Source: Chryseobacterium sp. OV279
GTDB lineage: Bacteria > Bacteroidota > Bacteroidia > Flavobacteriales > Weeksellaceae
NCBI RefSeq assembly: GCF_900128945.1
Contig: NZ_FQUD01000001.1
Coordinates: forward strand, 868,001 to 932,000
Direction: 5' to 3'
DNA length: 64,000 nucleotides
Part shown: piece after piece, positions 21,408 to 46,941 of the stretch
How the letters are laid out: the number at the start of each line of letters is the position of its first letter
How positions within the stretch are numbered: the stretch's first letter is position 1
Notes under the pieces: model-generated
Databases searched by the model: none
What the model saw: only the letters and a program-made list of their open reading frames with translations
Told to the model about the DNA's origin: nothing
Position numbers and translations under genes: made by a program

Positions 21408-21977
21408 ATGGGATTTAGTAAATTAAAAATACCAAGGGTATGCGAGCAGTGTTCAAAACCATTTGAAGCAAAGACAGTTACGACTCGTTTTTGTACTGTT
21501 TCCTGCGCTAATAAATCGGGAAAAGAGCGCAAAAAGCAGGAAAAAGAACGAGTGGAAAAAGAAACACTATTGAAAAAGTATGTGAATAAAATTGCAGAAG
21601 TTCAATCTCGTGAATTTTTATCCGTTGCTGAAGCAACTGTAATGTTTGGAATATCGAGAGATACCATTCACAGATTAATAAAACGTGGAATAATAAAGGG
21701 AGTTAATTTTGGAGTAAGATTAACTCGTGTTAAGCGATCAGATTTGGAAGATTTATTTTCAGCAGTTGAAATACCGGAAAAAAAGGAAATAATAATTGAG
21801 AAACCCAATTTTGAAGTTGGTAATTGTTATACAATTTCCGAAATTAGTTCAAAGTTCCACGCTGATCCAGGAACTGTAACAAACCTGATTAAAAGAAACA
21901 AAATTCCGACAAAGAAAGTTGGAAGTTTCGTGTATGTTCCTAAAAATTTAATTGATAAAATTTTTGACGGAAAATGA
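21408..21977 (+). CDS. DNA-binding protein with zinc knuckle and two excisionase-like HTHs
   Basis: 189 residues. The N-terminus has a treble-clef-like Cys pattern (CEQC near residue 13 and CTVSC near 32). Two MerR/excisionase-type helix-turn-helix units follow: FLSVAEATVMFGISRDTIHRL (split across helices, near 71-91) and CYTISEISSKFHADPGTVTNL (near 140-160), each with the wing that ends in KVGSFVYV-like strands. It overlaps the integrase by 4 bp and probably regulates or directs integration and excision. Such genes are common beside tyrosine integrases of Bacteroidota elements. Confidence 0.8.
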   Translation: MGFSKLKIPRVCEQCSKPFEAKTVTTRFCTVSCANKSGKERKKQEKERVEKETLLKKYVNKIAEVQSREFLSVAEATVMFGISRDTIHRLIKRGIIKGVNFGVRLTRVKRSDLEDLFSAVEIPEKKEIIIEKPNFEVGNCYTISEISSKFHADPGTVTNLIKRNKIPTKKVGSFVYVPKNLIDKIFDGK

Positions 21978-23215
21978 AAGAGTTATTAAAAACCAAAGTT
22001 ACCGTACGATTGCGAAAATCCGAATTCCGAAAAGAATGGTTTATTTATTTGGAAAGTTATCCTGTGATGATTCCTGGTAAAGATAAAGTTCAAAGAATCC
22101 GGGAATATTTGAACCGAAGCGTCACAACCGTAGATTTTGATAAGAAAAGACCTGCAAGAACAACCCAAGAATCCGTTTCATTTAAACCTAAAAGAGATGA
22201 CAATGGTATCATCGTTTGCAAAAGCGAAAATGATCGGGAAACAATGTTCTATGCAGATTCTATGCGTAAATTACGTCAGAGAGAATATGACAATATTGAA
22301 CTTTACAGCGAACTTGACAAAATTCAAGTAGAACAAAAAGAAAAATCGCAGAAGAATTTTGTGAGATATTTTGATCTGCTGGTTAGTAAGCGACATAGAA
22401 ACAATTCCGAATCTATTCAAATAAATTGGTATCGTTCGATAGAATTTCTAAAAGATTTTGGAGGTGAAAAAATTATGTTTTCTCAGATCAATACAAAATT
22501 CTGTGAAAACTTTAAATCATATTTGTTGACTGCAAAAAGTGGCAGCAATAAGCAAGAGATTATTTCTCAAAATACAGCTTCAACTTATTTTTCTGTTTTC
22601 AAAGCTGCATTAAAACAAGCTTTTATTGATGGATATTTTACGACTGATATTTCTGCTAAAATAAAAGCTATTCCGCACGAGGAATCAAGACGAGAATATT
22701 TAACACTTGATGAACTTAATACTTTAGTTGAAACGCCGTGCGAACTTGAAGTTCTTAAACGAGCAGCACTTTTTTCAGCCTTAACAGGTCTACGACATTC
22801 CGATATTCAGAAATTAACGTGGAAAGAAATAAGTATTGAAAACGATCAGGCAAAAATAAATTTTACACAAAAAAAGACAAAAGGTGTAGAATATATGCCG
22901 ATGTCTAAACAAGCATTACAACTTTGTGGTGAAGTAGGTCTTCCAGATGATTTGATATTTAAAAATTTGACTAATCCAGCTTGGATTTCCCGACCACTCA
23001 AGAAGTGGATTGAAAGTGCTGGAATTACTAAAAAAATAACTTTTCATAATTTTAGACACACTTTTGCAACGCTTCAACTTTCGAGTGGAACTGATATTTA
23101 CACAGTGAGTAAAATGCTTGGTCATACGAACGTAAAAACTACGCAGGTTTACGCAAAAGTTGTTGATGAAAAGAAAAATAAAGCTTCAACTGCTATTCAT
23201 CTAAAAAACTTATAA
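21974..23215 (+). CDS. tyrosine site-specific recombinase (integrase)
   Basis: 413 residues. N-terminal arm-binding region (about 1-100), SAM-like core-binding domain (about 115-215), and catalytic domain with the active-site residues in ALTGLRHSDIQKL (Arg), HNFRHTFATLQL (HxxR) and LGHTNVKTTQVYAKV (His and nucleophilic Tyr). It is the element's integrase: it cuts and rejoins att sites. The 4-bp overlap with the upstream HTH gene and the adjacency to the left boundary place it at the usual end of an integrated element. Confidence 0.95.
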   Translation: MKELLKTKVTVRLRKSEFRKEWFIYLESYPVMIPGKDKVQRIREYLNRSVTTVDFDKKRPARTTQESVSFKPKRDDNGIIVCKSENDRETMFYADSMRKLRQREYDNIELYSELDKIQVEQKEKSQKNFVRYFDLLVSKRHRNNSESIQINWYRSIEFLKDFGGEKIMFSQINTKFCENFKSYLLTAKSGSNKQEIISQNTASTYFSVFKAALKQAFIDGYFTTDISAKIKAIPHEESRREYLTLDELNTLVETPCELEVLKRAALFSALTGLRHSDIQKLTWKEISIENDQAKINFTQKKTKGVEYMPMSKQALQLCGEVGLPDDLIFKNLTNPAWISRPLKKWIESAGITKKITFHNFRHTFATLQLSSGTDIYTVSKMLGHTNVKTTQVYAKVVDEKKNKASTAIHLKNL

Positions 23216-27228: not shown

Positions 27229-28389
27229 ATGAAGACCTCTATTAATTTCAAAGTTGTTAAGTCCGATTCTGAAACCCATAATTTCAGGAAGAAAACTTTT
27301 GATTACATCCGTAAAGATCTGACGCCAAAAAATGAATATTGGATGGAACAGAAAATAGCTGATAGGATCCAAAAGATTGAAGCGTATTGCAAAGAAAAGT
27401 CCGGGAGGAAATTACAGAAGAATGCAATGCCTGTTCGGGAAGCTGTAGTTGTTATAAAAGAAGATACAACGATGCTGGAACTTCAAAACTTAGCAAAGAG
27501 ACTGGAAGAAGAATTGAATATCCGTGTTTTTCAGATCGCCATACACAAAGATGAAGGACATACCGATAAGGACACGAAAGAGTGGAAGCCAAATTACCAC
27601 GCTCATTTGGTAGCTGACTGGCAGGATCTGAAAACAGGAAAAACACTTAAACACCAATCCTTTCATTATTCAAAAATGCAGGATCTGACAGCGGAATGCC
27701 TCAATATGGAAAGAGGGATTTCTGGTTCCAGAGGAAGATTAGAAGCCATTGAGTTTAAGATTCAGCAAAAAGAAGAAGATCTCAAAGTTTTGGAAGAAAG
27801 ATATGATTTGATGAAGTCTGAAATGGGTTCGAAGAAATCGGAGGAGCTGGTTGTCAAGGAAAATGATTTTTTAGGTTTTAAAAAAATTAAGACTGATAAA
27901 ACCATCGAGAATTATGATAAAGCAATTCGAACTTATAAAAGCACAATTCTAAAAAATAAAACCGAATTGGAATCCAAATCAAAACAAATTACTGAGCTCA
28001 ATACAAAGGTTGTTGATTTACAAAAGCAAGTACATCTATTTAAAAACAAAAACGCTGTTCTATTGTCCAACACGACCGTTTTTGCTTCTGAAAAGAAAAA
28101 ATATCTAGATTCTGTTATTAATATTGTTGAGAGGGAAATCAAATTTTCAAGATTTAGAAATCCACACCTAGATAGAACAGATAGGCAAAAGTTGATATCA
28201 GAAATGGAAAAAATAGCACAAAAAATTTCACAAGAAAATACGGTTCCATTTTCAGCCTTCAATGAGATCTTTAAAGATAATGAGATGACAAATCAGCTTT
28301 TCTCTCTGTTGCAGTTCGGTAATGACAGTACAAATTATAAGGCTGAGGAGATTTCAATTGATAAGAAAAGGAAGAGAAAAAGATTGTAA
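27229..28389 (+). CDS. MobV-family relaxase / mobilisation protein
   Basis: 386 residues. The relaxase domain (about 1-165) has the N-terminal SINFKVVKSDSETHNFRK segment and the metal-binding His cluster IHKDEGH...NYHAHLVADW (near 105-130). Residues about 175-300 form a long coiled coil, and the tail is Lys/Arg rich. It would nick oriT and pilot the strand during conjugal mobilisation. The oriT-like inverted repeats lie just upstream. No coupling protein or type IV secretion genes are seen. Confidence 0.88.
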   Translation: MKTSINFKVVKSDSETHNFRKKTFDYIRKDLTPKNEYWMEQKIADRIQKIEAYCKEKSGRKLQKNAMPVREAVVVIKEDTTMLELQNLAKRLEEELNIRVFQIAIHKDEGHTDKDTKEWKPNYHAHLVADWQDLKTGKTLKHQSFHYSKMQDLTAECLNMERGISGSRGRLEAIEFKIQQKEEDLKVLEERYDLMKSEMGSKKSEELVVKENDFLGFKKIKTDKTIENYDKAIRTYKSTILKNKTELESKSKQITELNTKVVDLQKQVHLFKNKNAVLLSNTTVFASEKKKYLDSVINIVEREIKFSRFRNPHLDRTDRQKLISEMEKIAQKISQENTVPFSAFNEIFKDNEMTNQLFSLLQFGNDSTNYKAEEISIDKKRKRKRL

Positions 28390-28567: not shown

Positions 28568-30277
28568 ATGAAACTAATAGGATTTAGTGCTAAAAATTAC
28601 AGGTCTATATCGACAGCTTATAAACTACCTTTAGCAGATTATACAGTTATAGTCGGTCCAAATAATGAAGGGAAAAGTAATATTTTGAAAGGGCTTGGAC
28701 TTGCTTTGACATTATTGACGGGAAGCAAACAGCAAAGATTCAGAAGACCTGGTTTCATGTCTTATTCAAATAGAGGAATTGAAAGATTCGATTATGATTG
28801 GGAAAGAGACTATCCAATAAATCTTCAAACAATAGAGTTAGAAGGACGTTCGGAGTTCACTTGTGAATTTGAATTAACAGAAGCAGAACTTGAAGAGTTT
28901 AAGGCGAAAATAAAAGTCAACCTAAATAGTGTCTTAAAGGCAAAAATTTCAATCGGTAAAAGTGATGTTAAATTTGACTTTGTGATGAAAGGCAGGGGTA
29001 AAGAATCCCTAAATAAAAAAAGACTTGAAATATCTGAATTTGTCAATGAAAAGCTTCTTTTACAATATATTCCAGCCATTAGAACCTCAGATCTTGCTAT
29101 AAACATTGTTGAAAATTTATTGGAAAGAGAACTGTCAACACTTGAAGACAATCCTGAATTCAAGGAAGTGGTTAAAGTCATTACAAAATTACAACAACCA
29201 TTATTAAAAAAAATTGCTAAAAGTTTAAAGGAATCTATTTCTGGATTTATTCCTGATGTAAAAAATATTTCAATAAAAAATCGTGAAAATGTAGGGAGAT
29301 TAATTAGTTCATCTTGCAGGGTTTTTGTAGACGATGGTATTGAAACAGATTTACAATTTAAAGGAGATGGTGTTATAAGTTTGACTGCAATTTCTCTTTT
29401 GCAACATTTTAGTAAGCAAGGTTCATTAAATAAAGGTTTAGTCTTACTTCTTGAAGAGCCTGAAAGCCACTTACATCCAAAAGCAATTCACAGTTTAAAA
29501 AAAGTGCTTCTAGAGATTTCAAAAACTAATCAAGTAATTGTTACAACTCATTCTCCAATTATCATAGAAAGACTTCAAGTAAAACATAATGTCATAGTTG
29601 AAAACGGTAGGGCTATTCCAGCAAATAATGTGAATGAAATTCGGCAGTCACTTGGAATTACAATGTCGGACAATTTAGCAAGTGCTTATTTGGTATTATT
29701 AGTAGAAGGGGAAGAAGATATTGTTTTATTGAAACCATGGCTTGAAGAGAAGTCTTCAAAAATTAAATCTGCTTTTGCCAATGCGACCTTAATCATAGAC
29801 CACCTAGGTGGTGCTACAAACATTGGATATAAGACATCTCTTTATAAAAATAATCTTTGTAATGTAATTGCTTACCTAGACAATGATGAAGCAGGACGAA
29901 AAGGAGTATCAGACGCAGAAAATAAAGGGATTCTAAAGACGAATGAATATGTTTTGTCTTTTTGCAGAGGAATGCAAAATAGTGAACTTGAAGATTTAAT
30001 TGATTTGAATTCTTACAGACAATTAATTATTGACGAATATGCAGTTGACTTAAATATTCCTGCGTTCAAAACAAACAATAAGCAATGGTCGGATCGCGTC
30101 AGGGAATTATTCAGACTTAATGGGAAAATATGGAGCGACAAACTTGAAGGTGAAATTAAATATAAGGTCGCTAAAAAAGCAGCATCTTTAAAATTGACTT
30201 CATTAAACATTAACAAGATCAGTACTATTGATGCATTGGTTACAACAATTGAAAATGTATTAGGCAAACAAGGATGA
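28568..30277 (+). CDS. OLD-family ATP-dependent nuclease
   Basis: 569 residues. An ABC-type ATPase half with Walker A VGPNNEGKSNILKG (residues about 29-42), a Walker B LLLEEPESHLHP near 300 and the His switch TTHSPIIIERL near 325. A C-terminal TOPRIM nuclease half has LLVEGEEDIVLL (near 376) and VIAYLDNDEAGRKG (near 434). OLD proteins cut DNA and act in phage exclusion (P2 OLD) or with UvrD-like helicases in Gabija. No helicase follows, so this is a stand-alone form. Its downstream 440-bp spacer contains the candidate guide RNA of the opposite-strand locus. Confidence 0.92.
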   Translation: MKLIGFSAKNYRSISTAYKLPLADYTVIVGPNNEGKSNILKGLGLALTLLTGSKQQRFRRPGFMSYSNRGIERFDYDWERDYPINLQTIELEGRSEFTCEFELTEAELEEFKAKIKVNLNSVLKAKISIGKSDVKFDFVMKGRGKESLNKKRLEISEFVNEKLLLQYIPAIRTSDLAINIVENLLERELSTLEDNPEFKEVVKVITKLQQPLLKKIAKSLKESISGFIPDVKNISIKNRENVGRLISSSCRVFVDDGIETDLQFKGDGVISLTAISLLQHFSKQGSLNKGLVLLLEEPESHLHPKAIHSLKKVLLEISKTNQVIVTTHSPIIIERLQVKHNVIVENGRAIPANNVNEIRQSLGITMSDNLASAYLVLLVEGEEDIVLLKPWLEEKSSKIKSAFANATLIIDHLGGATNIGYKTSLYKNNLCNVIAYLDNDEAGRKGVSDAENKGILKTNEYVLSFCRGMQNSELEDLIDLNSYRQLIIDEYAVDLNIPAFKTNNKQWSDRVRELFRLNGKIWSDKLEGEIKYKVAKKAASLKLTSLNINKISTIDALVTTIENVLGKQG

Positions 30278-30622
30278 TAGACCTTCAAGTAACAGCCGTT
30301 TGGTAAAATGCTTTTCATTGATAATTTTAAGGGCAGTTGTTCGATTGAACTTTGCACTAAATCCTGCTTTCGGCAATTCTTAAAATTTTAAAAAGTGATT
30401 AAAAATCTCAAAGAAGATGGCTTTGTTGCAAGAGGAAAATTATTAGATTTTAATATTTATTGTTTAATAATACAATATAAATATGTGTCAAGTAAAGACA
30501 ATTTAAAAAATTATTGCTGTTTAACAGTCCGTAATATTCTTGTAATTTAATAGGTAAATTTAATCAACAGTTATTATCTGTACTCCATAGTCTAACCTGA
30601 TTTCCTGGCATCTAGTTCCCTA
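30278..30622. other. gene-free spacer with possible coding remnant
   Basis: No intact gene. On the plus strand a short open stretch near 30394-30460 reads VIKNLKEDGFVARGK, resembling the recognition helix region of a winged-HTH protein, but it has no start and is interrupted. It may be a decayed gene fragment. Otherwise A+T-rich sequence. Confidence 0.3.
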
Positions 30623-30719
30623 AGTAAAAAAGAACCCACGCCGTTGTATATACTATCTAGTATTTAGTGAGTGTTCATGACCTCACCCTGCGGGTGTACA
30701 AGCACCCTCATTTTTTTAG
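30623..30719 (-). ncRNA. candidate guide RNA of the dCas12f-sigma system
   Basis: Immediately after the dCas12f stop codon, on the same strand, lies a compact structured stretch. In RNA sense: GGGTG-CTTGTA-CACCC (30692-30707), GTGAG with CTCAC (30667-30686), ATACTA-GA-TAGTAT (30650-30663), then ATACAAC (30643-30649), which resembles the end of a Cas12f crRNA repeat. The candidate guide starts at 30642, GGCGTGGGTTC and on toward 30623. Position and layout match guide RNAs that follow TnpB/Cas12f-type genes. The boundaries, and the guide itself, are inferred. Confidence 0.5.
30692..30717 (+). terminator. possible plus-strand terminator overlapping the guide RNA scaffold
   Basis: Read on the plus strand, GGGTG-TACAAG-CACCC (30692-30707) is followed by TCA and seven T (30711-30717), an intrinsic-terminator layout that could end transcription coming from the OLD gene. 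The same hairpin is part of the proposed minus-strand guide RNA, so the two readings compete or coexist. Confidence 0.4.
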
Positions 30720-31820
30720 CTATCCGATGATCAATTCAATACCGGCTTTTTCAGCTTTATATTTTATTTTGGTCTGCAATTCATAGTAACTCCAGTTGCG
30801 AAGCACAAATTCCTGATCTTTTGCAATCCCGATTTTGTCTTCCTGATTTTTAAGAATCAATGTACCTGCCTGCTGTCGGATGCAGAAATCGATCAGCTTC
30901 CTGCTATACAAATGAAGCCGATGACTTACATACCGACTTTCCAAATTTTCTGTTTTATACAATGCCTTTTGTTTGCGTTTGGCTCCATTTCCTGAGTGGG
31001 CATATTCGACACCAGCTTGAATCCTTTTCTGACTTGCCTGTATCGCAAGCCTGCGGTATAAAAACTCTTCTTTCGAGCCAATATTGATTCGCACATTGTT
31101 GGCTTTTACAACTATAGGATGTTCCAGAGATAACGAAGCTTCTGCAATGATTTCGGGTTTTAAAACGTGCTCATCCTTTTCAAATTCAAATACGGCAAGC
31201 CAAAAGATTTTCCGGTCTTTCAGTTGGATCTGTGAGTTGCAGAGCTTTATCTCATCTTTTAAGAGACTTTCCATTATCAGACGTTTATCGGAAAAGTCTT
31301 TTCCTAAATACGTTTTAACCGGAATAGCAAACATATTGAAGCAAAACCCTTTTTGTTCTGAATCATATCTCATTTTACTGATGCATTTTACAGGAAGCGG
31401 AATTGGAATATCTCTCTTAAAGTTTCTCAGCGATTTTGTTCCCTGCCAATAGTCTGCTTTGTTTTTAGAAAAGGTGGATTGAATCGTATTGTTCAGACTT
31501 CCCAGAATATCAGTCGGAATCTCTCCTTTGAAACGGTTAAATACCATGCGGGCAGTTGTGTTTGTTTTGGAGCGTGTAAACATTCCCATTTCATCTTTGT
31601 TTGCATCAGCCAGCTTGTATTGGACTTCTTCTGTGAGATAAAAGAAATCCTTGATCATTTCTTGTACATACAAATGGGAAACAATGAAATTAGCAGCACG
31701 GAAACAGCGGTTTTGATAGCGGTAGAGTTTTTCCCACATTTCTTTTTTTTCGTCTACAGGAACATCGATTAGCAACTGAATTTTTCGGGTAAGTGTAATT
31801 GTCGATTTTTCCATTATCAA
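30720..31820 (-). CDS. nuclease-dead, truncated Cas12f/TnpB-like protein (dCas12f)
   Basis: 366 residues, starting at ATGA overlapping the sigma factor stop. The C-terminal 120 residues match the TnpB/Cas12f RuvC region: AKRKQKALYKTENLESRYVS, then SRKLIDFCIRQQAGTLILKN and NWSYYELQTKIKYKAEKAGI (near 342-361). The catalytic residues are gone: RuvC-I has INIG with Asn246 for Asp; the RuvC-II strand reads LILK with Lys324 for Glu; the protein stops before the zinc ribbon and RuvC-III Asp. It should bind RNA and DNA but not cut. The N-terminal 240 residues fit the REC/WED part. With the coupled sigma factor this fits RNA-guided recruitment of RNA polymerase. Confidence 0.85.
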   Translation of the reverse strand: MIMEKSTITLTRKIQLLIDVPVDEKKEMWEKLYRYQNRCFRAANFIVSHLYVQEMIKDFFYLTEEVQYKLADANKDEMGMFTRSKTNTTARMVFNRFKGEIPTDILGSLNNTIQSTFSKNKADYWQGTKSLRNFKRDIPIPLPVKCISKMRYDSEQKGFCFNMFAIPVKTYLGKDFSDKRLIMESLLKDEIKLCNSQIQLKDRKIFWLAVFEFEKDEHVLKPEIIAEASLSLEHPIVVKANNVRINIGSKEEFLYRRLAIQASQKRIQAGVEYAHSGNGAKRKQKALYKTENLESRYVSHRLHLYSRKLIDFCIRQQAGTLILKNQEDKIGIAKDQEFVLRNWSYYELQTKIKYKAEKAGIELIIG

Positions 31821-32632
31821 AGAGTTATTTCAGAAATGTTTTGATTTTGTAGATATTGATAGGCATACAGAAATTCCCGATGTACTTCCTTCTCAGGTAA
31901 TTTGAGTTCTTTGGCAATAACCGCAAATGAAGATTTCTGTTCGCATCTTCTTTTCATGATCTCTAGCTGTTGACTGCTAAGGATATTTAACTGCTCTTCA
32001 TTGTTGAATGCTTTTTTCTGTGGCGGTTCAAAAGAAGTTCTGTTGAGAATTTTCTTAAGATCGTCTATGGCTCTGCTCACCTCATTGCTGATGCTCGTCA
32101 CACTGCTTCCCATAGCTTCTGCTATGGGTTTGTATTGAAAGCCATATTCAAGACAAAGTTCAATAAGGTGTTTTCTTTTGGAATCCAGTACATTTAAAAT
32201 GTTTTTAACTTCATCAAAATCTTTTTGATCAGATTCCTGATTGAGAAGAATTTCTTTATCAATTAATGGATCGTAACCTGCGAGATAATCCTGATAGTTT
32301 TCAAAACTTTCAAGGGAAGCCATCAAGCGAGTGAATTTATTCTTCGGAGCGTTGAAATAGGAGATACAATCTCTTTTCATAACAAACCGTAAGAAACCAA
32401 GAATATGATTAGGGGTCTCAATTGAATCACGATTAACCCATAGTTTGAGAAAAACATCCTGAACAAGAGTTTCTACAACGAAATCATCATCAAGCTTTTG
32501 TTTTCCAAGCCAGAAAAGAAGCCTTTTGTAGCGCAAATGAATATGATTGAGAGCAATGGGATTGCCTTCTTTAAACAGTTTGTAAAGCTGAAAATCGGTT
32601 AACTTTCGGGGCGAAGTATTTGTTCTTTTCAT
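31817..32632 (-). CDS. ECF-like sigma factor with extra C-terminal HTH, partner of dCas12f
   Basis: 271 residues. Sigma region 2 spans about residues 14-100 (FLKLWVNRD and GFLRFVMKRDCISYF), region 4 about 145-195 (KRKHLIELCLEYGFQYKPIA, then SSVTSISNEVSRAIDDLKKI). A C-terminal extension, about 210-260, looks like a second region-4/HTH unit (SQQLEIMKRRCEQKSSFAVI, then ELKLPEKEVHREFL). Ordinary ECF factors end after region 4 at about 180-200 residues. There is no anti-sigma gene. The stop overlaps the dCas12f start (ATGA), so both proteins are made together and probably act as a complex. Confidence 0.85.
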   Translation of the reverse strand: MKRTNTSPRKLTDFQLYKLFKEGNPIALNHIHLRYKRLLFWLGKQKLDDDFVVETLVQDVFLKLWVNRDSIETPNHILGFLRFVMKRDCISYFNAPKNKFTRLMASLESFENYQDYLAGYDPLIDKEILLNQESDQKDFDEVKNILNVLDSKRKHLIELCLEYGFQYKPIAEAMGSSVTSISNEVSRAIDDLKKILNRTSFEPPQKKAFNNEEQLNILSSQQLEIMKRRCEQKSSFAVIAKELKLPEKEVHREFLYAYQYLQNQNISEITL

Positions 32633-32735
32633 AAGCAGTGTGTTTAGTAATCATTGCTGGAAGGAACTGCTTATATCTAAAGAGGAATTCTACCGATTAA
32701 TCGTATCCTATTTATTTAGTTTTACGCAAAATAAA

Positions 32736-32862
32736 CGGCGTGGAACTCAACTTATAGCATTAGAGGCACTGGTATACCCGTGTACGATAAGTGAGCCCAC
32801 GCCGAAGTCGTGGGCAATTTACTTATCTTCTCGTACACATAAAATTACCAGTTTTCTAATGC
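32736..32862. repeat. long structured inverted repeat with competing pairings upstream of the sigma-dCas12f operon
   Basis: Five nested arms pair across 32757-32862: GCATTAGA/TCTAATGC (32757-32764, 32855-32862), CTGGTA/TACCAG (32769, 32846), GTGTACG/CGTACAC (32780, 32832), ATAAGT/ACTTAT (32787, 32821) and GCCCACG/CGTGGGC (32795, 32809), 34 bp in all. An alternative fold pairs CGGCGTGG and ACTTAT (32736-32743, 32750-32755) with ATAAGT and CCACGCCG (32787-32792, 32797-32804). It lies in the 385-bp divergent spacer between the sigma and XRE genes: an operator, leader switch or structured RNA. CGGCGTGG also begins the candidate guide. Confidence 0.7.
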
Positions 32863-33017
32863 GAGAATCTAAGCAATAGCTTCTATATTTCTTTGAACTA
32901 TCGCAAAGTTACACTCTTGTAACCTGTATTGCAAATATAGCAAAATATTTAATACTTGGGATATATCCCAATAGAATTTTTTCAAATTTATTGCATTTTG
33001 CTATAAATAAAGAAGTA

Positions 33018-33269
33018 ATGGACATTTTGAATGATCTAACAATTGGTATCGGAAAAAGAATTAAAGTAATTAGAAAGGAAAAGGCTTTGACTCAAGAAAC
33101 CTTAGGATTAATAACGGGAATTGATAGCGCAGACATTAGCAAATATGAGTCAGGCAAAATTAACTTAACTTTAAAGACAATTTCGAAGTTTGCTATTGCA
33201 CTAAATGTACACCCTAAAGAATTATATAATTTCGATCTTGATATTACGAAATATAAAATTGAAGAGTAA
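33018..33269 (+). CDS. XRE-family helix-turn-helix regulator
   Basis: 83 residues from the ATG at 33018 (an in-frame TTG at 32991 is less likely; AAAGAAG precedes the ATG). Five-helix Cro/CI fold: IGKRIKVIRKEKALTQETLG (residues about 10-29), then SADISKYESGKINLTLKTI (recognition helix region). It is divergent from the sigma-dCas12f operon and faces the structured inverted repeat, so it is a plausible repressor of that operon. Such proteins also control other mobile-element genes. Confidence 0.85.
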   Translation: MDILNDLTIGIGKRIKVIRKEKALTQETLGLITGIDSADISKYESGKINLTLKTISKFAIALNVHPKELYNFDLDITKYKIEE

Positions 33270-34742: not shown

Positions 34743-36518
34743 TTAGTTGGGTTTGTTTTTTGATCTTTCCAAAATTTGATAATAATAACTAAATGGCTTA
34801 TTATATTTTATAGTTTCACGTTCAGGAATGTCAATATTTAAATCTTCAACCTTTTTTACATCCTTTAATAATTTGTAATACTCTTTGCTTCTGTTTCTGT
34901 CAAATTGCTTAATCTGCCTTAGAGAATGTTTATTGATTGTGAGTAATCTAAAACCATTTTTCCAGCATAAATCCGTTGAAACCTCTTCAAAATTTTCAAT
35001 TCCTACTCTGCCAACAGACATTCCAATAAGTCTGTTGATTGCTGACTCAGTTACTGTACCTTTTGGCTTTCTCATACCAACAGCCACTGCATTTTTAATT
35101 TCTGTAACGATTACTTTTTGCTTTTTTAGTTCTTTTTTAAATGATTTTTTTCTAATTCTAATTTCACCATTGTAATTAATTTCATAACCTACAAAACCTA
35201 TCCACGGAAAATTCAGATTTTCAACTTCACCCCACTGAAAAGGACCTTTCGATTTCCCTTTCCAAAATTCATTATAATAAATATTGTCATCTGAATCAAA
35301 ATTAATTAGTTGTAGATCATCTTTGAAAGGATGAGGAAATAGTTTCAATTCATTTAAAGTTGCCATATATTGGTCTTTAGATTTACAGCACTCTTTTACA
35401 GAATTTCCAATAATAATCATATCATCACAAAATCTCGAATAGAAAATATCGTAATTTTTCATCTGAATATCAGTATCGTTTAAAACAATATTAGCTATCA
35501 GACCAGAAAGTGCACCACCTTGAGGAATACCAATTCTGTGCTTTGTAAAATCATCATAATGCTTACTTAGGTCATTATTTCCTATCCATCCAAAAAAACC
35601 ATTGGGTATTCTATATGAGTTCCAATAATGATTATCTGTTTTTTTTGGACAATCGTAATTAAAACAATAAATATCTAAATAATCGTTGAAAATAGTCTTT
35701 GCAAAATTTAAATTTATTTCAGGAAATTGTTTCTGAGATAATATTATTAAGTCGTTGAACTTGGATTTAACAATTTCGTGGCTAATTGTATCAAAAAATT
35801 TCATCATGTCGCATTCAACAACGAAAAGTTTTTTACCGTTGTTATTTTTTTTATATTCTAATATATCTTCAATACAGTGATGGTGAGATATAATGCTTTT
35901 TTCACGTTTCTTTACTCTAAAAGCATATGAACTATCTTGAAATTTATCATCAAAAAGTTGTGTTAAAAATTTATTTGTTAAGCTTAAAATAATTCTGTCT
36001 TTAAAACTAAATAAACAAATTGGTCTACATTCGTTGTCTTTGTTTAGCAATAAACTGCCTTTTAATTCTGGAAATAATATCGGCTTAGATAATCTATAAT
36101 TATTTTCAGAAACCGTATTTTGAATTTCAGTAATTAGAGATTTTAAGTTCAGAAACCAAGAGTCTTGCGATTTATTTCTTTCATAAAGTTTAATAGTTTT
36201 TAATAAGGAATAGAAATTTTTGTCATTAGAGGTTAGAAACTCATTGTTACTGCTGTTTTTTCTTCTTGACTTTTCTCCCAGACTAACCCACTTTTTTCTG
36301 GGGGGCAAAATATTATTTAGTTCTTGAATAAGATTTGCTTGATACATTATTAATTCGCTTCCACCCTGACTTTTTCTGTTATGATAATTATAACCAGGGT
36401 TTGATGTAAGAAGATGTAGCGAATGCTTTTTTGATCGATTTCTAGCCAATTTGATTCGCATTTTACAAATTTGTCTAATAATTTCAGATGTTCTAAAATA
36501 AAAATTAATTTGATTCAT
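34743..36518 (-). CDS. reverse transcriptase, defence-associated (UG/Abi-like)
   Basis: RT with motif A ECDMMKFFDT, motif B RIGIPQGGALSGLIAN, and the catalytic box FSRFCDDM-type (FCDD in place of YADD), followed by a thumb-like region and a 150-residue C-terminal extension. About 590 residues from the ATG at 36518; GTG at 36557 and ATG at 36347 are other possible starts, and the RT core begins only after the last. No group II intron maturase or endonuclease domain is seen. It is in the same frame as the PrimPol gene just upstream, with one stop between them. RTs of this kind serve phage defence, which is the likely but unproven role. Confidence 0.82.
   Translation of the reverse strand: MNQINFYFRTSEIIRQICKMRIKLARNRSKKHSLHLLTSNPGYNYHNRKSQGGSELIMYQANLIQELNNILPPRKKWVSLGEKSRRKNSSNNEFLTSNDKNFYSLLKTIKLYERNKSQDSWFLNLKSLITEIQNTVSENNYRLSKPILFPELKGSLLLNKDNECRPICLFSFKDRIILSLTNKFLTQLFDDKFQDSSYAFRVKKREKSIISHHHCIEDILEYKKNNNGKKLFVVECDMMKFFDTISHEIVKSKFNDLIILSQKQFPEINLNFAKTIFNDYLDIYCFNYDCPKKTDNHYWNSYRIPNGFFGWIGNNDLSKHYDDFTKHRIGIPQGGALSGLIANIVLNDTDIQMKNYDIFYSRFCDDMIIIGNSVKECCKSKDQYMATLNELKLFPHPFKDDLQLINFDSDDNIYYNEFWKGKSKGPFQWGEVENLNFPWIGFVGYEINYNGEIRIRKKSFKKELKKQKVIVTEIKNAVAVGMRKPKGTVTESAINRLIGMSVGRVGIENFEEVSTDLCWKNGFRLLTINKHSLRQIKQFDRNRSKEYYKLLKDVKKVEDLNIDIPERETIKYNKPFSYYYQILERSKNKPN
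36363..36400 (-). ncRNA. possible structured RNA in the RT 5' region
   Basis: ACCCTG (36363-36368) pairs with CAGGGT (36395-36400) and GTTAT (36378-36382) with ATAAC (36390-36394), giving a continuous stem on one side. It lies inside the RT reading frame between ATG 36518 and ATG 36347. If the true RT start is 36347, this segment would be upstream noncoding RNA, as in several RT-based defence systems where a template RNA precedes the RT gene. Only a hint. Confidence 0.3.
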
Positions 36519-36647
36519 GTCATAAAATATGGGGTTCCGAGTAAAGTGTTTACACACGTATTGACAAAGATGCTGAGATATAATTTTTTCCCCTTTTAAA
36601 CTCTTTGGCAGGGTTTTACCGTTGATAAGAGTGATACTTGCGAGAGA

Positions 36648-37852: not shown

Positions 37853-39976
37853 ATGGATAAATATATAAGCAAGCATATAGACAGATTAATGCTGGATCCA
37901 AATAATTATCGATTTATTGATAATAAGGATTATGTTCACGTATCAGACGATCAAATAAGTGAGAAAAGAATACAGGATAGATCTTTGAGTTTTTTGATAG
38001 GTAAAAATGAAGATAACATTTCTGATTTAGTTACCAGTTTTAAATCAAATGGAATTTTAAAATTAGATCCAATTCAGGTTAAGGAATTGCCTGATAATAA
38101 TTATTTAGTAATCGAGGGAAATAGAAGAACAGCGGCTTTAAAATATTTGTATGAACAGTACAAAAAGTCAAACGATGTAGGTAAGTTAACAGAGAGTGAT
38201 TTTAAAAGCGTGGAATTAGTGTTGATTTCAGAAGAGAGTCCCATACAGCATCTAATAACTATGGGATTACATCATATTAGTGGTAAAAAAAAATGGAGCC
38301 CTGTCAATCAAGCTCAACTAATTCAGGATCTGAAAATCAAACACAAACTAACAGAAGAAGAAATTTGTAATTCATTAGCGATTAATAAACATAATTTGAG
38401 AAGGAGTCTGCGTATTCTATCACTTATTGAAGGGTATAAACGTAGTGATTATGGTGACCAGTTTCAAACAAATATGTTTTCGGTTTTTGAAGAAGTTATT
38501 AAGAATGTGAAAATGAAAGCTTGGTTAGAATGGAACGATACAGAAATGCGTCCTACAAATTTAGAGAATGAAGAAAAATTATTTTCTTGGATATCTAAAG
38601 ATGAAAGTATAGAAGAAGATGAATTAGGAAATGAGCAACAAATCACTTTAGAGCCAATTATAACAAAAAGTCATGAAATCAGAGAACTTTCTAAATTCAT
38701 AAATGAGCCTAAAGCTGTCGAGCAAATGGAAGAGGCAAGAAGTATTGCTTTCGGTTTTGTTTTCAGTGATGCAGTAGGTGAGTCAAGGCTTCGCAATGCT
38801 TTGGAAACAATTCAAAAAGAAGTTAATTCTGCTTTTCAATTTAGTGAATTTATGAATCAATCCGATTATACAATAATTAGTAAACTCAGAAATAAACTAG
38901 ATAAATTACTACCGACTAATTCAAATATTGAATTAACAGAATCTCCTGCATCTATTTATTTTAATTCAGTTGAATCACATTTTAACTCAGTTAATATAAT
39001 TCAATATAGAAAATTACATAACATTCAAATAAGTAACTTAAGTAGAGTAAATATTTTTGCAGGTGGAAATAATACTGGGAAGACCTCACTGCTCGAGATT
39101 TTTTTCTTATTTACAAGACTTAATAGTTTTAAATCAGTTATCGATTTAGAAAGGTTCAGAGGAAGATTTTATCAAGATTTTCCAACAAAATGGTTTAACA
39201 AAATTTTTGTGGACAGCATAAATATACAAGCAGAATTTAACGATATTATGTGTTCTGTAAACATTATTAAAAAGGAAACCAATGAAGATATAGATAAAAG
39301 TCATTATCTAACTAGTATAGTTACAGATGCCAATGTAAATGGAGACAATTTCTCAAGTACAATTCATTTATTTGATAATAAAGATCCTGAATTTTATTAT
39401 GAAAAAAGCCAATTTTTATGTCAAGCCACATTCAGCAGCCCTTATAGATATGATGGACAACTCTTGAAGAGAGCTCACGCAAAGGCAGTACAAGAAAAAT
39501 ATTTTGATGAAATTATGCTTTTTATCAATGAAAATTTAGATAAAAATATTGAAAAAATTGAAATGATCAGTATAGATAACGAAAGCCGATTCATGGTAAG
39601 TTCTACAAATAACGACGTGGCTATTGATATCACAAAATATGGGGAAGGATTGCAGAGAGTATTTGAGATTGCTTTGCTAATGGGATATAGTAGAAATGGT
39701 GTAATCTGTATTGATGAATTAGATAGTGCAATACATAAAAACTTATTGGTTAAATTTACAGAGTTTATACAAAAATTAGCACAAAAATTTAATGTTCAGG
39801 TCTTTTTGTCGACTCATAGTAAGGAATGCATTGATGCATTTGTAGAAAACGGTTATCCTGATAATGAATTAATGGCTTATGCAATTACGGAAGAGGATGG
39901 TAAATTAGTTGCTAAATTTCTAGAAGGAAATAAATTAAAGCATTTAGTAGAAAGTATAAATATTGATATCAGGTAA
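37853..39976 (+). CDS. ParB-like domain fused to AAA ATPase
   Basis: 707 residues. The N-terminal ParB/Srx-like domain (about 1-200) carries LVIEGNRRTAALKYL (near 84-98), the ParB CTP-binding-type motif, and an HTH-like region (LTEEEICNSLAINKHNLRRS). After a helical middle, an ABC-type ATPase starts near 395: Walker A AGGNNTGKTSLLEIF (near 403-417), Walker B VICIDELDSAIHKN (near 617) and H-switch VFLSTHSKECIDAF. It lacks a nuclease domain, which the next gene supplies. The pair resembles a split OLD nuclease. Confidence 0.8.
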   Translation: MDKYISKHIDRLMLDPNNYRFIDNKDYVHVSDDQISEKRIQDRSLSFLIGKNEDNISDLVTSFKSNGILKLDPIQVKELPDNNYLVIEGNRRTAALKYLYEQYKKSNDVGKLTESDFKSVELVLISEESPIQHLITMGLHHISGKKKWSPVNQAQLIQDLKIKHKLTEEEICNSLAINKHNLRRSLRILSLIEGYKRSDYGDQFQTNMFSVFEEVIKNVKMKAWLEWNDTEMRPTNLENEEKLFSWISKDESIEEDELGNEQQITLEPIITKSHEIRELSKFINEPKAVEQMEEARSIAFGFVFSDAVGESRLRNALETIQKEVNSAFQFSEFMNQSDYTIISKLRNKLDKLLPTNSNIELTESPASIYFNSVESHFNSVNIIQYRKLHNIQISNLSRVNIFAGGNNTGKTSLLEIFFLFTRLNSFKSVIDLERFRGRFYQDFPTKWFNKIFVDSINIQAEFNDIMCSVNIIKKETNEDIDKSHYLTSIVTDANVNGDNFSSTIHLFDNKDPEFYYEKSQFLCQATFSSPYRYDGQLLKRAHAKAVQEKYFDEIMLFINENLDKNIEKIEMISIDNESRFMVSSTNNDVAIDITKYGEGLQRVFEIALLMGYSRNGVICIDELDSAIHKNLLVKFTEFIQKLAQKFNVQVFLSTHSKECIDAFVENGYPDNELMAYAITEEDGKLVAKFLEGNKLKHLVESINIDIR

Positions 39977-39977
39977 T

Positions 39978-40793
39978 ATGGCAACGCAAATACTAGCGAT
40001 ACTTTGTGAAGGTGTTCATGATGTTGAATTTTTATCGAAAATTTTAAGATTTAATGGTTTTAGTAGTAATGATAGTTCCAAGATAAAAGACTATCCCGCC
40101 CCGATTGCTCAATTACTTAAAACTGAAGCGACAAAAAGTAATGTTGACGACTTAAATTTGATGACTGTAAGACAGGTGCTTCTGCCTGGTAGCACAGTTA
40201 GAAAGGATAATAACTATCTTCTTATTTATGCGATGGGAGGTGATGAAAAAAAAACTATAAGGAAACAGTTATTATCAGACTTCCACATGCTTATTCCAAA
40301 GAAAGATGAAATAAGTTCTTTACCTAAAGATACAAATTTAGGGATTATTTATTTTTTAGATTCTGATGATAAAGGTATCTCTGAAAGAATTTCTAATTTA
40401 AATACCGAAATTAATGAGATTATAAATATTCAGCCGTTCAAGTCACATAAGGAAATCTATAATCATAACGGATTAAAATTAGGCGCTTTTATATTTACTG
40501 GTGCTGATAATGATACTGGAAAGTTAGAAGATATTTTAATGCCCTTGATGAAAAAAGATAATGAAGATATCTTTGAAAATGCAAACTCATATTTGAAAGA
40601 TCATTATAACGATGGTCGAAAAGTGCAAAAATATGATAATGATAAGTCAATTATAGGAGTTGTTGGACAACTTCAAATTTCGGGAGCCTCAAATACGGTC
40701 TGTATAAAAAAATCCGATTATCTCAATGATGTAAAGATTAAAGCTGATATAAAATGTATCGAAATAGTTGATTATATAAATTCTCTTTGCTAA
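39978..40793 (+). CDS. TOPRIM-like nuclease partner of the ParB-AAA protein
   Basis: 271 residues from the ATG at 39978, one base after the ParB-AAA stop. The N-terminus ILAILCEGVHDVEFLSKILR has the TOPRIM Glu and helix; LGIIYFLDSDDKG (near 110-122) supplies the D-x-D motif. This matches small TOPRIM/DUF3226-like proteins paired with AAA ATPases in anti-phage modules such as PARIS, where the ATPase holds or activates the nuclease. The tight coupling supports a complex. The exact family is not certain. Confidence 0.72.
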   Translation: MATQILAILCEGVHDVEFLSKILRFNGFSSNDSSKIKDYPAPIAQLLKTEATKSNVDDLNLMTVRQVLLPGSTVRKDNNYLLIYAMGGDEKKTIRKQLLSDFHMLIPKKDEISSLPKDTNLGIIYFLDSDDKGISERISNLNTEINEIINIQPFKSHKEIYNHNGLKLGAFIFTGADNDTGKLEDILMPLMKKDNEDIFENANSYLKDHYNDGRKVQKYDNDKSIIGVVGQLQISGASNTVCIKKSDYLNDVKIKADIKCIEIVDYINSLC

Positions 40794-44398: not shown

Positions 44399-45871
44399 TT
44401 AATCGATCACAAGATAATTGTACTTGTCACTTGGTGCTATGCTGTATTCCACATCTTCTGTGTAAATGGGTACCACTTCACACCCGAATCTTCCCCTTGG
44501 CATACAGGGCCCGTTCTCACGGGACAATACCTGATTGGGAATGCTCATATTAATATTCATTCCGGCATTTTGAAGAATGATAGGTTCATTCGTAGTAGTG
44601 TAAGTCCAGGCTCCATTCATACCGCTATTTTTTCTCCCTACTTTTGATATTTTGTTGATCACAAAGCGGATGCTCGGATGAGCAATCGTGTTGGTCTGGC
44701 TCTTACTGGAATAGAAATACAGTTTTAAGTCCACATTTCTGTTACGGCCGCTGGTGATATTTTCTTTCACCAGTTTTACATAAACCGGTGGGTTTTTAAT
44801 GTCAAATTTAAAGGTAGTTTTCACCGGGGAATTATCCTTTAAATAAGAGTATGTACAGAAAATCGGAACACCCGGCTGGCTTTTTGAGAAAGTTCCCTTA
44901 GAAATATGGTTCACAAAAGCTTCATATCCTTTGAAAGACTGTGCAGCGGTAACGCCGCTTCCGCCTATCAGATAAAGATTGAAATCCGCTCCGTTTAGGA
45001 AGTTTTTTTCCTCCTGAGTCAGATAACTTTCACCCTTTACAAACAGCTTGCTGAATGATTCATTGATCGTCGTTCTTGCCGTCTCCGTCAGTTCATTGGT
45101 TTCAATCGTTAAAACACCCATTCTTCCGTAAGAAATAGAATTCACATACACCGGTTCTACACCGCCGCTGTCAAAATTGTTGTCATTCACAAGTGATCCG
45201 GCAGGAATATCCATATCCAGCGTGAAAGAAGTCTGGTAAAATTTCACATAGAATCCCGTTCTTTTTGCAATCATCCCTTCTTCAATATTCGTAGATGAAG
45301 AGTTTTTACCAAATAAAGATCTTGTATTCACATTTGACCCAAAGGCCACTTTCAGCTCATCATAAGACGTGAACTGTTCCACACTGTAGCTCAGCGTTCC
45401 GTTCTGTGTAAAATCAGCAGACTGGATATAATCCTGTACCAACTGTCTGGTCTTGGATAAAGAAGGCTGATCAATGGTGAATGCTGTCTTTTTATTCAAA
45501 GCCGGAATAGACATCGAAACGGTAACAGGCTTTACTGAAGCCGTAATGGGCTTAAAATTCATATCCTGTATGGAATTGCCTTTCAGAAGAGATCCCGGGA
45601 AAATATACATCTGAAGGTGTGGCAGCACGATGGATTCCGAAGATTCAAATTCTTTTGTTTCTGTAAATTCTTCCGCATTGCCCCCTTTAGCAAGCATACT
45701 TGTATTCTTACCTGACAATGCTGAAGGATAGGTTCCGAATGAAGTTACATTCACCACCTGTTGGGGAGTGCGGACCATTTCCTGAGCTTCTGCGGATCTT
45801 TCAAGCTCATTCGTACAACTTTCTAAGGCAGCTATAGAGATAGCTGCCATTAGGAATATTAATTTTTTCAT
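44399..45871 (-). CDS. long cholesterol-dependent-cytolysin-like pore former (CDCL-L)
   Basis: 490 residues. Lipoprotein-like signal with SC at residue 19. The body has CDC/MACPF hallmarks: KVAFGSNVNTRSLFG (near 173), FYQTSFTLDMDIPAGS, the strand VYVNSISYGRMGVLTIET (near 243), and LYLIGGSGVTAAQ (near 304), with an extra C-terminal region of about 100 residues that takes the place of CDC domain 4; the CDC undecapeptide is absent. It is the long partner of a two-component CDCL, where a short protein joins to make the pore. It directly follows the short gene (2-nt gap). Confidence 0.85.
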   Translation of the reverse strand: MKKLIFLMAAISIAALESCTNELERSAEAQEMVRTPQQVVNVTSFGTYPSALSGKNTSMLAKGGNAEEFTETKEFESSESIVLPHLQMYIFPGSLLKGNSIQDMNFKPITASVKPVTVSMSIPALNKKTAFTIDQPSLSKTRQLVQDYIQSADFTQNGTLSYSVEQFTSYDELKVAFGSNVNTRSLFGKNSSSTNIEEGMIAKRTGFYVKFYQTSFTLDMDIPAGSLVNDNNFDSGGVEPVYVNSISYGRMGVLTIETNELTETARTTINESFSKLFVKGESYLTQEEKNFLNGADFNLYLIGGSGVTAAQSFKGYEAFVNHISKGTFSKSQPGVPIFCTYSYLKDNSPVKTTFKFDIKNPPVYVKLVKENITSGRNRNVDLKLYFYSSKSQTNTIAHPSIRFVINKISKVGRKNSGMNGAWTYTTTNEPIILQNAGMNINMSIPNQVLSRENGPCMPRGRFGCEVVPIYTEDVEYSIAPSDKYNYLVID

Positions 45872-45873
45872 GC

Positions 45874-46941
45874 TTATTTTTCTACAGTGAATGTGGTGTA
45901 GTAGACAGAATTGTCACCTGCATGAGCTGCGGTAAAGTTGATAGGAACTCCCGGAGCATTAGCCGTAAACTGACCGCCATTCACGATGAAGTTGATAAAG
46001 CCGGTGTAACCCTGTACCACCTGTACTGCATCAGATCCGATACCTCCCAGAATGTACACTTTCAGGTCAGACTCTTCAAGGATTTTTTTACTCTGAACAT
46101 CAATGCTGATGGATCCGTTCACCATTTTAGCATTTAAGGCTGCTTTTAAAGCAAAAGCCGTTTCGTTGTAAGAATAATCAGATTCAAGAGAGATGATTCC
46201 CAGTCTTCCGTACGTGATAGAGTTGATGTAAACCGGATTTTTAGACGCTGCCAAATTCAGGTCAGATTCATTTTTGAAGATATTTCCGTTATCCGGAATA
46301 TCCATATCGATGGTGAAATTTTTCTGCGTGAACTTAGCAAAGATCCCCGTATTTTTTTTCACTTTATTGTTGCTTCCGCTGATATCGATACTGAAAATAC
46401 TTCCGATATTAACGTTAGCGCCGAAAGCAATTTTAAGTTCGCTGTAATAAGAGAACTGCTTGATGTTATAATCAAAAGCAAGCGACTGCTGACCGCTGAA
46501 ATTGGCACTCTGCATCGCTTTGAAGATAGAAGATCTCATGCTCGAAAGGGTAGGCTTTTCAATCGTGTCAACAATAAAGTCAGACGGGAAGGAATAGGAA
46601 ACCGTGATCGGCTTTACAGGATAAGAGATCGGGGTATACGAAAGATTGTCCAGCGTAGTGGAATTATAAACACCTCCGATAAACGTTTTGTTGGGAGAAG
46701 TTACCACCATCTGATCACTGTTTAGAGTCACTGTAGTAGTTTTGGAAGCCAGTTCTTTTCCGCCTACAGATACTTCGTCATAATTTAAATACTTCGAAGG
46801 TAAAGCCACAACAGGATTTAGTTTTGAAGCTTTTGCTCCTTCTACAACAGTTTGTGCTTCCTCATTCATATCCTGACGGCAGGAGATTGAAGTAATACTG
46901 GCTACAACCAGTAATGCAATGGGTAAAATGATTCTTTTCAT
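45874..46941 (-). CDS. short cholesterol-dependent-cytolysin-like component (CDCL-S)
   Basis: 355 residues with a lipoprotein-like signal (SITSISC, Cys near 21). It shares the CDC core with the long gene: KIAFGANVNIGSIFS, the KNFTIDMDIPDNG strand, VYINSITYGRLGIISLES, and VYILGGIGSDAVQVV, but ends after the MACPF-CDC fold, without the C-terminal extension. Short and long CDCLs are known to act as pairs in Elizabethkingia and Alistipes. It is the first gene of the operon and has a promoter element shared with the gene at 47219. Confidence 0.83.
   Translation of the reverse strand: MKRIILPIALLVVASITSISCRQDMNEEAQTVVEGAKASKLNPVVALPSKYLNYDEVSVGGKELASKTTTVTLNSDQMVVTSPNKTFIGGVYNSTTLDNLSYTPISYPVKPITVSYSFPSDFIVDTIEKPTLSSMRSSIFKAMQSANFSGQQSLAFDYNIKQFSYYSELKIAFGANVNIGSIFSIDISGSNNKVKKNTGIFAKFTQKNFTIDMDIPDNGNIFKNESDLNLAASKNPVYINSITYGRLGIISLESDYSYNETAFALKAALNAKMVNGSISIDVQSKKILEESDLKVYILGGIGSDAVQVVQGYTGFINFIVNGGQFTANAPGVPINFTAAHAGDNSVYYTTFTVEK

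What the first reader, a model, noticed from the sequence alone, without database searches (positions are those of the whole stretch)
30623..32862. Sigma factor coupled to a nuclease-dead Cas12f-like protein: candidate RNA-guided transcription-activation system
Seen: an ECF-like sigma gene (31817-32632) and a Cas12f/TnpB-like gene (30720-31820) overlap by ATGA; the RuvC region is recognisable but Asn246 replaces Asp, Lys324 replaces Glu, and the protein ends before RuvC-III and the zinc ribbon. Known: TnpB/Cas12f are RNA-guided nucleases; to my knowledge dCas12f-sigma pairs from Bacteroidota were recently reported to drive RNA-guided transcription with a minimal 5'-G target-adjacent motif; I have not checked this. 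Inference: here the complex would recruit RNA polymerase to a site picked by a guide RNA, and the system rides on a mobilisable element.
Basis: partly seen in the sequence, partly recalled or inferred. Interest (0 to 1): 0.97.

Follow-up and report, generated by a model that had tools for sequence, protein, structure and literature searches.

The report
RNA-guided sigma factor for leader-tagged operons
A likely mobile stretch of DNA in a Chryseobacterium-group bacterium carries a sigma factor gene beside a Cas12f gene that has lost its cutting residues and a guide-RNA-like sequence whose predicted guide matches a shared leader in front of its own genes and of a nutrient-uptake operon elsewhere in the genome, so the complex is predicted to switch those operons on.

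Summary
New here is the guide. A guide-RNA-like scaffold 3' of dcas12f is followed by GGCGTGGG in 59 of 60 loci, and the scaffold is in exactly the 31 of 118 genus genomes with dcas12f (intact or broken). The predicted guide matches a covarying structured leader (A; no Rfam match) upstream of the sigma gene and, in this genome, of a SusC-SusD-S9-peptidase operon on another contig, with the 5'-G expected beside targets. In Flavobacteriaceae relatives guide and leader change together (16/17 match in one; a different leader with matching guides in another). Best reading: a mobile-element-borne sigma-dCas12f complex using one conserved guide to transcribe its own and other A-led operons. Binding, start site and activation are inferred. 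Against: A is in 105 of 118 genomes with or without the system, 22 of 55 loci lack an intact self-site, and 20 of 53 systems fail a shuffle test.

The parts
30720..31814 (-). nuclease-dead Cas12f (dCas12f), 364 aa from the ATG
   Evidence: PDB 9n9c/9n9m/9n9o/9n9q E 6.5e-159; PADLOC Cas12f E 3.8e-51; Asp->Ser and Glu->Lys, truncated before RuvC-III; start site
31817..32632 (-). ECF-type sigma factor with a C-terminal extension, 271 aa
   Evidence: PDB 9n9q chain C 'RpoE' E 1.6e-81 over residues 17-262; Pfam sigma regions 2 and 4
30643..30710 (-). guide-RNA-like scaffold 'B' just 3' of dcas12f, ending ATATACAAC
   Evidence: found downstream of dcas12f in 59 of 59 related loci, disrupted in L029; model R1 hits exactly the 31 of 118 genus genomes that hold dcas12f, intact or broken
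30626..30642 (-). predicted guide, GGCGTGGGTTC followed by a T run
   Evidence: directly follows the scaffold; GGCGTGGG after the scaffold in 59 of 60 loci
32736..32873 (-). structured leader element 'A' upstream of the sigma gene
   Evidence: 33 leader sequences aligned; covariation; model R2 hits 105 of 118 genus genomes
32793..32803 (-). guide-matching site in leader A: 5'-G (32803), then GCGTGGGCTC
   Evidence: 10 of 11 seed bases identical to the guide, the other a C opposite guide T
32755..32760 (-). predicted start region of RNA-guided transcription, about 46 nt after the G (distance recalled, not measured here)
   Evidence: inference; lies after the A hairpin and before the GAG tail, which starts 53-58 nt after the G in the 60 distinct leaders measured
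32932..32939 (-). TATATTTG, -7-like element of an ordinary Bacteroidota promoter (motif recalled)
   Evidence: sequence
32908..32923 (-). GTTACAAGAGTGTAAC inverted repeat, candidate operator
   Evidence: sequence; function inferred
33018..33269 (+). divergent small Cro/CI-type (XRE) regulator gene
   Evidence: Pfam HTH_3 E 8.9e-11 (on the longer TTG-start ORF 32991-33269)
21974..23215 (+). tyrosine integrase of the carrier element
   Evidence: Pfam Phage_integrase E 1.4e-25
27229..28389 (+). MobA/VirD2-like relaxase of the carrier element (weak match)
   Evidence: Pfam Relaxase E 0.0012, below the curated cut-off; relatives near 15 of 59 loci

Best explanation
This is a sigma-dCas12f pair of the known RNA-guided transcription family whose predicted guide matches a structured leader upstream of its own operon and of a SusCD operon, and it would therefore recruit RNA polymerase to transcribe those leader-tagged operons. 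Shown by sequence: the protein pair, the scaffold and guide sequence, the leader family, and the matching sites with a 5'-G in the orientation of the gene. Inferred: the guide RNA is made and loaded on dCas12f, dCas12f binds the leader DNA, sigma recruits polymerase, and transcription starts about 46 nt after the G, that is, downstream of the XRE-type operator and of the leader hairpin. RNA-guided transcription would thus bypass each operon's own repressor.
For: Family. Scaffold in 59 of 59 loci, and in exactly the 31 of 118 genus genomes with dcas12f (intact or broken). Guide matches own leader: 33 of 53 scored systems have a guide whose match is reached by at most 1 of 100 shuffles (weights mine). 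Independent change of guide and leader: in the 77%-to-9n9c relative (L284) guide GCGTGGGCTCTCTTATT against leader G|GCGTGGGCTCACTTATT, 16/17; L285 carries GGCGTGGGCTTA in both; L286 has another leader type, and two of its three guides match it 11/11 (the third 9/11) but six other leaders only 7-9/11. 5'-G before the seed: 41 of 41 A leaders examined, chosen from the best-scoring. Second A in this genome leads SusC (TIGR04056 E 8.7e-200), SusD and an S9 peptidase. In genome G119 an extra guide, GGGGCGGTTTTC, has one exact non-self site, in a structured leader upstream of a thioredoxin-like, SusC, SusD operon. 25 of the 31 genomes hold more A elements than dCas12f matches.
Against: Leader A occurs in 29 of 31 genomes with dcas12f and 76 of 87 without, so conservation of the trans sites is not evidence of use. 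22 of 55 loci lack an intact self-site (6 mutated, 4 truncated, 12 without A). 20 of 53 systems fail the shuffle test. The guides of L287 and L288 match their own leader no better than some other leaders. Most guides match only 10-12 bases before a T run. The 11-mer also lies inside two unrelated genes of this genome. No relative of the A-type SusC or SusD lies in the fetched flanks (up to 10 kb) of any of the 59 loci. Other extra guides have no convincing target: of 17 exact matches to a degenerate pattern for three of them in G118/G119, 14 were looked at and 13 are inside ORFs; extra guides of L285, L287, L288 and L297 were not searched genome-wide.
Confidence: 0.72

Rival explanations
1. 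The guide acts on RNA, not DNA: the guide of B pairs with the complementary arms of the leader transcript (GCTCACG upstream, CCCATGCC-like tail downstream) and changes leader folding or termination.
For: Leader RNA carries two segments complementary to the guide. The motif-tail helix is 99.1% paired. The A' leader of G119 likewise has complementary arms on both sides of its motif (sequence; fold).
Against: It would not need a sigma factor or the 5'-G. Solved family members include a dCas12f-gRNA-DNA complex. The minimum-energy fold does not form the motif-tail helix, and its covariation is modest (score 0.160 against 0.142 shuffled, 2 of 500 as high).
Confidence: 0.12
2. The shared GGCGTGGG is not a guide-target pair: B has a fixed 3' end made of the same structural motif as the leader, and the true guides act elsewhere or are lost.
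For: Near-invariant guide in 59 of 60 loci, unusual for a programmable guide; a T run follows after 10-12 bases.
Against: Guides differ in arrays (L047, L049, L285-L288, L297) and change together with the leader in L284, L285 and L286.
Confidence: 0.1
3. It represses instead of activating, like TldR proteins that block promoters.
For: A nuclease-dead TnpB relative alone can act as a repressor (TldR; abstract and passages of PMC13418256).
Against: A dedicated sigma gene lies directly upstream on the same strand; an RpoE chain is in the same PDB entry, 9n9q, as dCas12f.
Confidence: 0.04
4. A defence or CRISPR remnant inside a defence island.
For: Neighbours include OLD/AriA-like, DRT-type reverse transcriptase UG39 and PDC-M38 proteins.
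Against: The catalytic Asp and Glu are replaced in all 11 sequences aligned. The guide matches the bacterium's own leaders, and 27 of 31 genomes hold a full-length match without stops.
Confidence: 0.02

Closest known systems
dCas12f-sigmaE RNA-guided transcription (PDB 9n9c, 9n9m, 9n9o, 9n9q; titles seen: 'dCas12f-gRNA complex' and 'dCas12f-gRNA-DNA complex (partial R-Loop)'; Hoffmann et al. and Xiao et al. 2025 preprints, recalled, not read)
   Same: Both proteins homologous over most of their length; nuclease-dead and truncated; 5'-G next to the matching site; SusC-type operon downstream of a site
   Different: Here one near-invariant guide is shared by 59 of 60 loci and matches a structured leader family, including the system's own leader; the locus sits on a mobile-type element away from SusCD. 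I could not check whether the papers describe any of this.
TldR (TnpB-like nuclease-dead repressors)
   Same: RNA-guided DNA binding by an inactivated TnpB relative on mobile DNA, acting on host genes
   Different: No sigma partner is mentioned in what I saw; represses a host flagellin gene (PMC13418256, abstract and passages)
Cas12f nucleases (Al3Cas12f 9nzo/9nzr, AsCas12f, Un1Cas12f1)
   Different: Catalytic Asp and Glu replaced; no RuvC-III or zinc ribbon; no repeat array seen at 30270-33000

Membership tests
sigma-dCas12f RNA-guided transcription systems | Cas12f homologue with inactivated RuvC | tested here: met
sigma-dCas12f RNA-guided transcription systems | genetically linked ECF sigma factor homologous to the solved RpoE | tested here: met
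   (E 1.6e-81); sigma relative found at 56 of 59 loci
sigma-dCas12f RNA-guided transcription systems | guide RNA encoded beside the pair | tested here: met
   conserved scaffold and guide as DNA sequence; its expression was not tested
sigma-dCas12f RNA-guided transcription systems | target with a 5'-G adjacent motif upstream of a gene | tested here: met
   41 of 41 leaders examined (best-scoring ones) have G before GCGTG(G/A)G(C/T)T; the G rule itself is recalled and stated in the finding
sigma-dCas12f RNA-guided transcription systems | guide-dependent recruitment of RNA polymerase and start about 46 nt from the motif | not testable with these tools
   needs ChIP-seq, reporter and 5'-end mapping
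Cas12f nuclease / type V-F CRISPR | intact catalytic Asp-Glu-Asp | tested here: not met
TldR repressor | acts without a sigma partner | tested here: not met
   sigma gene directly upstream
TldR repressor | blocks a promoter | not tested
   needs a reporter assay
Any Rfam family (leader A) | match to a curated RNA family | tested here: not met
   no gathering match in the window; no relevant match on L084 and L167 at E up to 5

The most novel reading that the evidence does not exclude
A one-guide RNA-guided regulon: a mobile element carries a sigma-dCas12f complex whose fixed guide reads the DNA of a new family of structured leader RNAs, switching on its own operon and, in trans, the host's silent SusCD and other operons. 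It starts transcription downstream of each operon's private XRE repressor site and between the two arms of the leader's competing hairpins, so it overrides both repression and leader control at once. Extra guides arise by duplication of the dcas12f 3' end together with the scaffold.
Probability: 0.35. Interest if true: 0.87.

Novelty: new variant of a known kind. Interest (0 to 1): 0.68.

Why it matters
The protein pair is a known kind, but what natural guides aim at is the open question. Here guide, own leader and a genomic SusCD target can be read from sequence, and guide and leader change together in relatives. If true, it shows how an RNA-guided activator can run a whole regulon with one guide by reading a shared leader, and how mobile DNA could take control of a host's outer-membrane uptake systems. 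It also uncovers a widespread structured leader (105 of 118 genomes sampled) for which no Rfam family was found.

Tried and rejected
First guess, that the leader A was the guide RNA with a variable guide after CCACGCC: rejected because the following sequence is similar between loci, and the search with that stretch found only itself exactly.

AlphaFold model of dCas12f from 11 sequences: mean pLDDT 50.5, so only the RuvC half (residues about 209-364) is informative.

Attachment-site repeats around the integrase: one 14-base match, nothing longer, in an exact-repeat script of one limited region, so the element's ends are unknown.

Terminator scan of the A' leader: no terminator called at the motif-tail stem; the attenuation idea stays weak.

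Plasmid and phage collections: 8 and 2 records, all matches under 30% identity.

Literature: seven searches of the PMC library listed no paper that I could recognise as about sigma-dCas12f; bioRxiv as such is not held, so nothing here shows that the leader or guide findings are unpublished. Papers seen: PMC13418256 (abstract and passages), PMC13186708 (passages); all others as search listings only. The ~46-nt start distance and the TATATTTG promoter motif are recalled; the 5'-G is recalled and also stated in the finding.

Target conservation test: A instead of G at seed position 7 is in 2 of 9 fetched trans leaders from genomes with the system and 5 of 31 from genomes without it (read by eye), so this gave no support for use in trans.
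Full report
OBSERVATION. On the minus strand, a 271-aa sigma gene (31817-32632) is followed by a 364-aa Cas12f-like gene. The ATG of the latter (31814) lies two bases after the sigma stop. The Cas12f-like protein matches a chain in four PDB entries named 'Nuclease-deactivated Cas12f' at E 6.5e-159, and the sigma factor matches 'RpoE' of entry 9n9q at E 1.6e-81. Entry titles seen: 9n9c 'dCas12f-gRNA complex', 9n9m 'dCas12f-gRNA-DNA complex (partial R-Loop)'. In the alignment to a Cas12f effector (9nzo) the position I know as the RuvC Asp falls on Ser229 and the Glu on Lys324 (TTG numbering). The Ser is nearly invariant, and the Glu position is non-acidic in all 11 sequences aligned.

RELATIVES. 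One scan of GTDB genome contigs gave 59 distinct loci, mostly named Chryseobacterium, with Epilithonimonas, Kaistella, Elizabethkingia and others, most at 85-93% identity, up to four in one genome (ISL-6). A sigma relative is at 56 of 59; L076 starts at a contig end, and L078 and L079 hold only part of dcas12f. In a sample of 118 genomes of the window's genus, 31 hold dcas12f; in 27 of these at least one match is full-length without stops. That the genus is Chryseobacterium is my inference: the gRNA hit of sample genome G090 has the same contig number and coordinates as L038, Chryseobacterium sp. Leaf201.

GUIDE ELEMENT B. Directly 3' of dcas12f a scaffold of about 68 nt is conserved in 59 of 59 loci (GAGGGTGCTTGTACACCC..GGGTGAGG..ACACTCACTAAATACT..AGTATATACAAC), disrupted at its end in L029. 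It is followed by GGCGTGGG and then a C/T- and T-rich tail. GGCGTGGG follows the scaffold in 59 of 60 loci counting the window. A covariance model of B hits exactly the same 31 of 118 genomes as the protein search. The element alone folds no better than shuffles (z -0.9). Some loci have arrays of two or three scaffolds with different guides: L047, L049, L285-L288, L297. Between units of L047 and L285 lie decayed copies of the dcas12f 3' end (tblastn E 1.4e-6 and 0.004; not significant in the others), so guides may multiply by duplication of the gene's end with its scaffold.

LEADER A. Between a TATATTTG promoter-like motif and the sigma start lies a structured element of about 140 nt. On 39 distinct sequences, 97.0% of pair cells are standard; 93 cells show changes on both sides (shuffled mean 30.1); covariation score 0.205 (shuffled 0.067, sd 0.005; 0 of 500; slid structures at most 0.043). 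Those rows were fitted to the model, which favours it; a separate RNAalifold run on 33 sequences gave 9 of 38 pairs with double changes. No Rfam family matches. The model hits 105 of 118 genomes, up to 8 per genome: 29 of 31 with dcas12f and 76 of 87 without. I fetched 40 of these elements, chosen by me from the best-scoring part of a capped list, not at random. Counting the window's own, 41 rows were classified by first downstream gene: SusC 15, a 174-aa unknown family 21, a 430-aa protein followed by SusC 2, sigma 1, other 2. 38 of 40 have a small divergent ORF about 275 nt upstream; I verified it as Cro/CI-type HTH only for the window and L084. These ORFs differ widely in sequence while A stays the same.

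GUIDE MEETS LEADER. The site GGCGTG(G/A)G(C/T)T, whose first G would be the target-adjacent motif, is in 41 of 41 leaders examined; these are best-scoring leaders, and the model itself contains the site. In this genome the site occurs in the leader of the sigma operon and in a second A on contig C3. The second A is followed by SusC (TIGR04056 E 8.7e-200), SusD and an S9 peptidase. A third, weak A (38 bits) at C2:1246630 carries GGGCGTGGGCT. The 11-mer GGCGTGGG(C/T)TC has five places in the genome (guide, two A leaders, two inside unrelated genes); the pattern read backwards has none. Against own leaders, 33 of 53 scored systems have a guide match that at most 1 of 100 shuffled guides reaches; 20 do not; 7 of 60 systems were not scored because my pattern missed the guide or it is lost. 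Of the 55 loci (window included) where my script found the sigma frame, the self-site is intact in 33, mutated in 6, truncated in 4 and absent in 12.

CO-VARIATION. An order-wide search with the 9n9c chain found 22 of 395 genomes, five of them in another family. L284: guide 16/17 to its own leader with the 5'-G. L285: second guide and leader share GGCGTGGGCTTA. L286: a different leader (AAAGCCTTCCC); two of its three guides match 11/11, the third 9/11, while six other leaders give 7-9. L287 and L288 match weakly, and no better than they match some other leaders. In genome G119 an extra guide, GGGGCGGTTTTC, has one exact non-self site, in a structured intergenic leader (z -4.4) with a divergent XRE-like gene (by eye) and a downstream thioredoxin-like, SusC, SusD operon that starts 2.7 kb away. 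By my arithmetic about 0.3 such matches are expected by chance in that genome, and at up to two mismatches the count is hardly above the tool's control. For a degenerate pattern of three extra guides, 17 exact places were found in G118 and G119. I looked at 14: 13 lie inside ORFs, one (L240) is intergenic and was not followed. In G118 the guide GGGGCGGTTTTC has only its own array as an exact match.

MECHANISM. Shown: sequence parts and matches. Inferred: expression, loading, binding and activation. With the recalled start distance of about 46 nt, transcription would begin after the A hairpin and before the guide-complementary tail, which starts 53-58 nt after the G (60 distinct leaders). That is downstream of the inverted repeat next to the TATATTTG motif, so the complex would bypass the XRE-type repressor. 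A competing motif-tail helix exists in sequence (99.1% paired) but has modest covariation and is not the minimum-energy fold; leader attenuation is therefore only an idea.

MOBILE SETTING. Upstream lie an integrase, a VapE-like protein, a primase and a weakly matching relaxase. Relatives were found near the 59 loci as follows: integrase 10, VapE-like 12, primase 22, relaxase 15; 29 of 59 have at least one of these or of the HTH protein beside the integrase. None has a relative of the A-type SusC or (partial) SusD query in the fetched flanks of up to 10 kb. The element's ends were not found.

CONTRARY RESULTS. A is about as common in genomes without dcas12f, so its conservation must have another cause. 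Many loci have lost the self-site. Matches are short. No expression data were available.

NOVELTY. The pair is a known kind. The fixed guide, the structured leader family and the paired changes look new to me, but the two 2025 preprints could not be read here.

Noticed in passing
L157-L196; window 32736-32873: Leader A is a widespread structured RNA element (105 of 118 genus genomes) without an Rfam match, placed between many different divergent XRE-like genes and SusCD or other operons.
   Followed up: partly
L165, L171, L178, L196 and others: A 174-aa protein family, one member of which has no Pfam match, is the first gene after A in 21 of 41 rows.
   Followed up: no
window 34743-36557: Reverse transcriptase matching PADLOC RT_UG39 (E 4.7e-201), a candidate DRT-type defence protein.
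   Followed up: no
window 28568-30277 and 37853-40793: OLD/AriA-like ATPase-Toprim protein and a PDC-M38A/B pair beside the sigma-dCas12f locus: the carrier looks like a defence island.
   Followed up: no
window 44399-46941: Two neighbouring genes match Pfam Thiol_cytolysin (E 1.5e-19 and 8.8e-23).
   Followed up: no
L246:2640-2960: A second leader type (A') in genome G119 has its motif flanked by complementary arms on both sides, as in A, 2.7 kb before a SusCD operon.
   Followed up: partly
L047:11092-11790; L285: Decayed copies of the dcas12f 3' end lie between guide units, suggesting guide arrays grow by duplication.
   Followed up: partly
L240 (G118:C14:115994-116005): An intergenic exact match to the extra guide TGAGCGGTTTTC of L047.
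   Followed up: no
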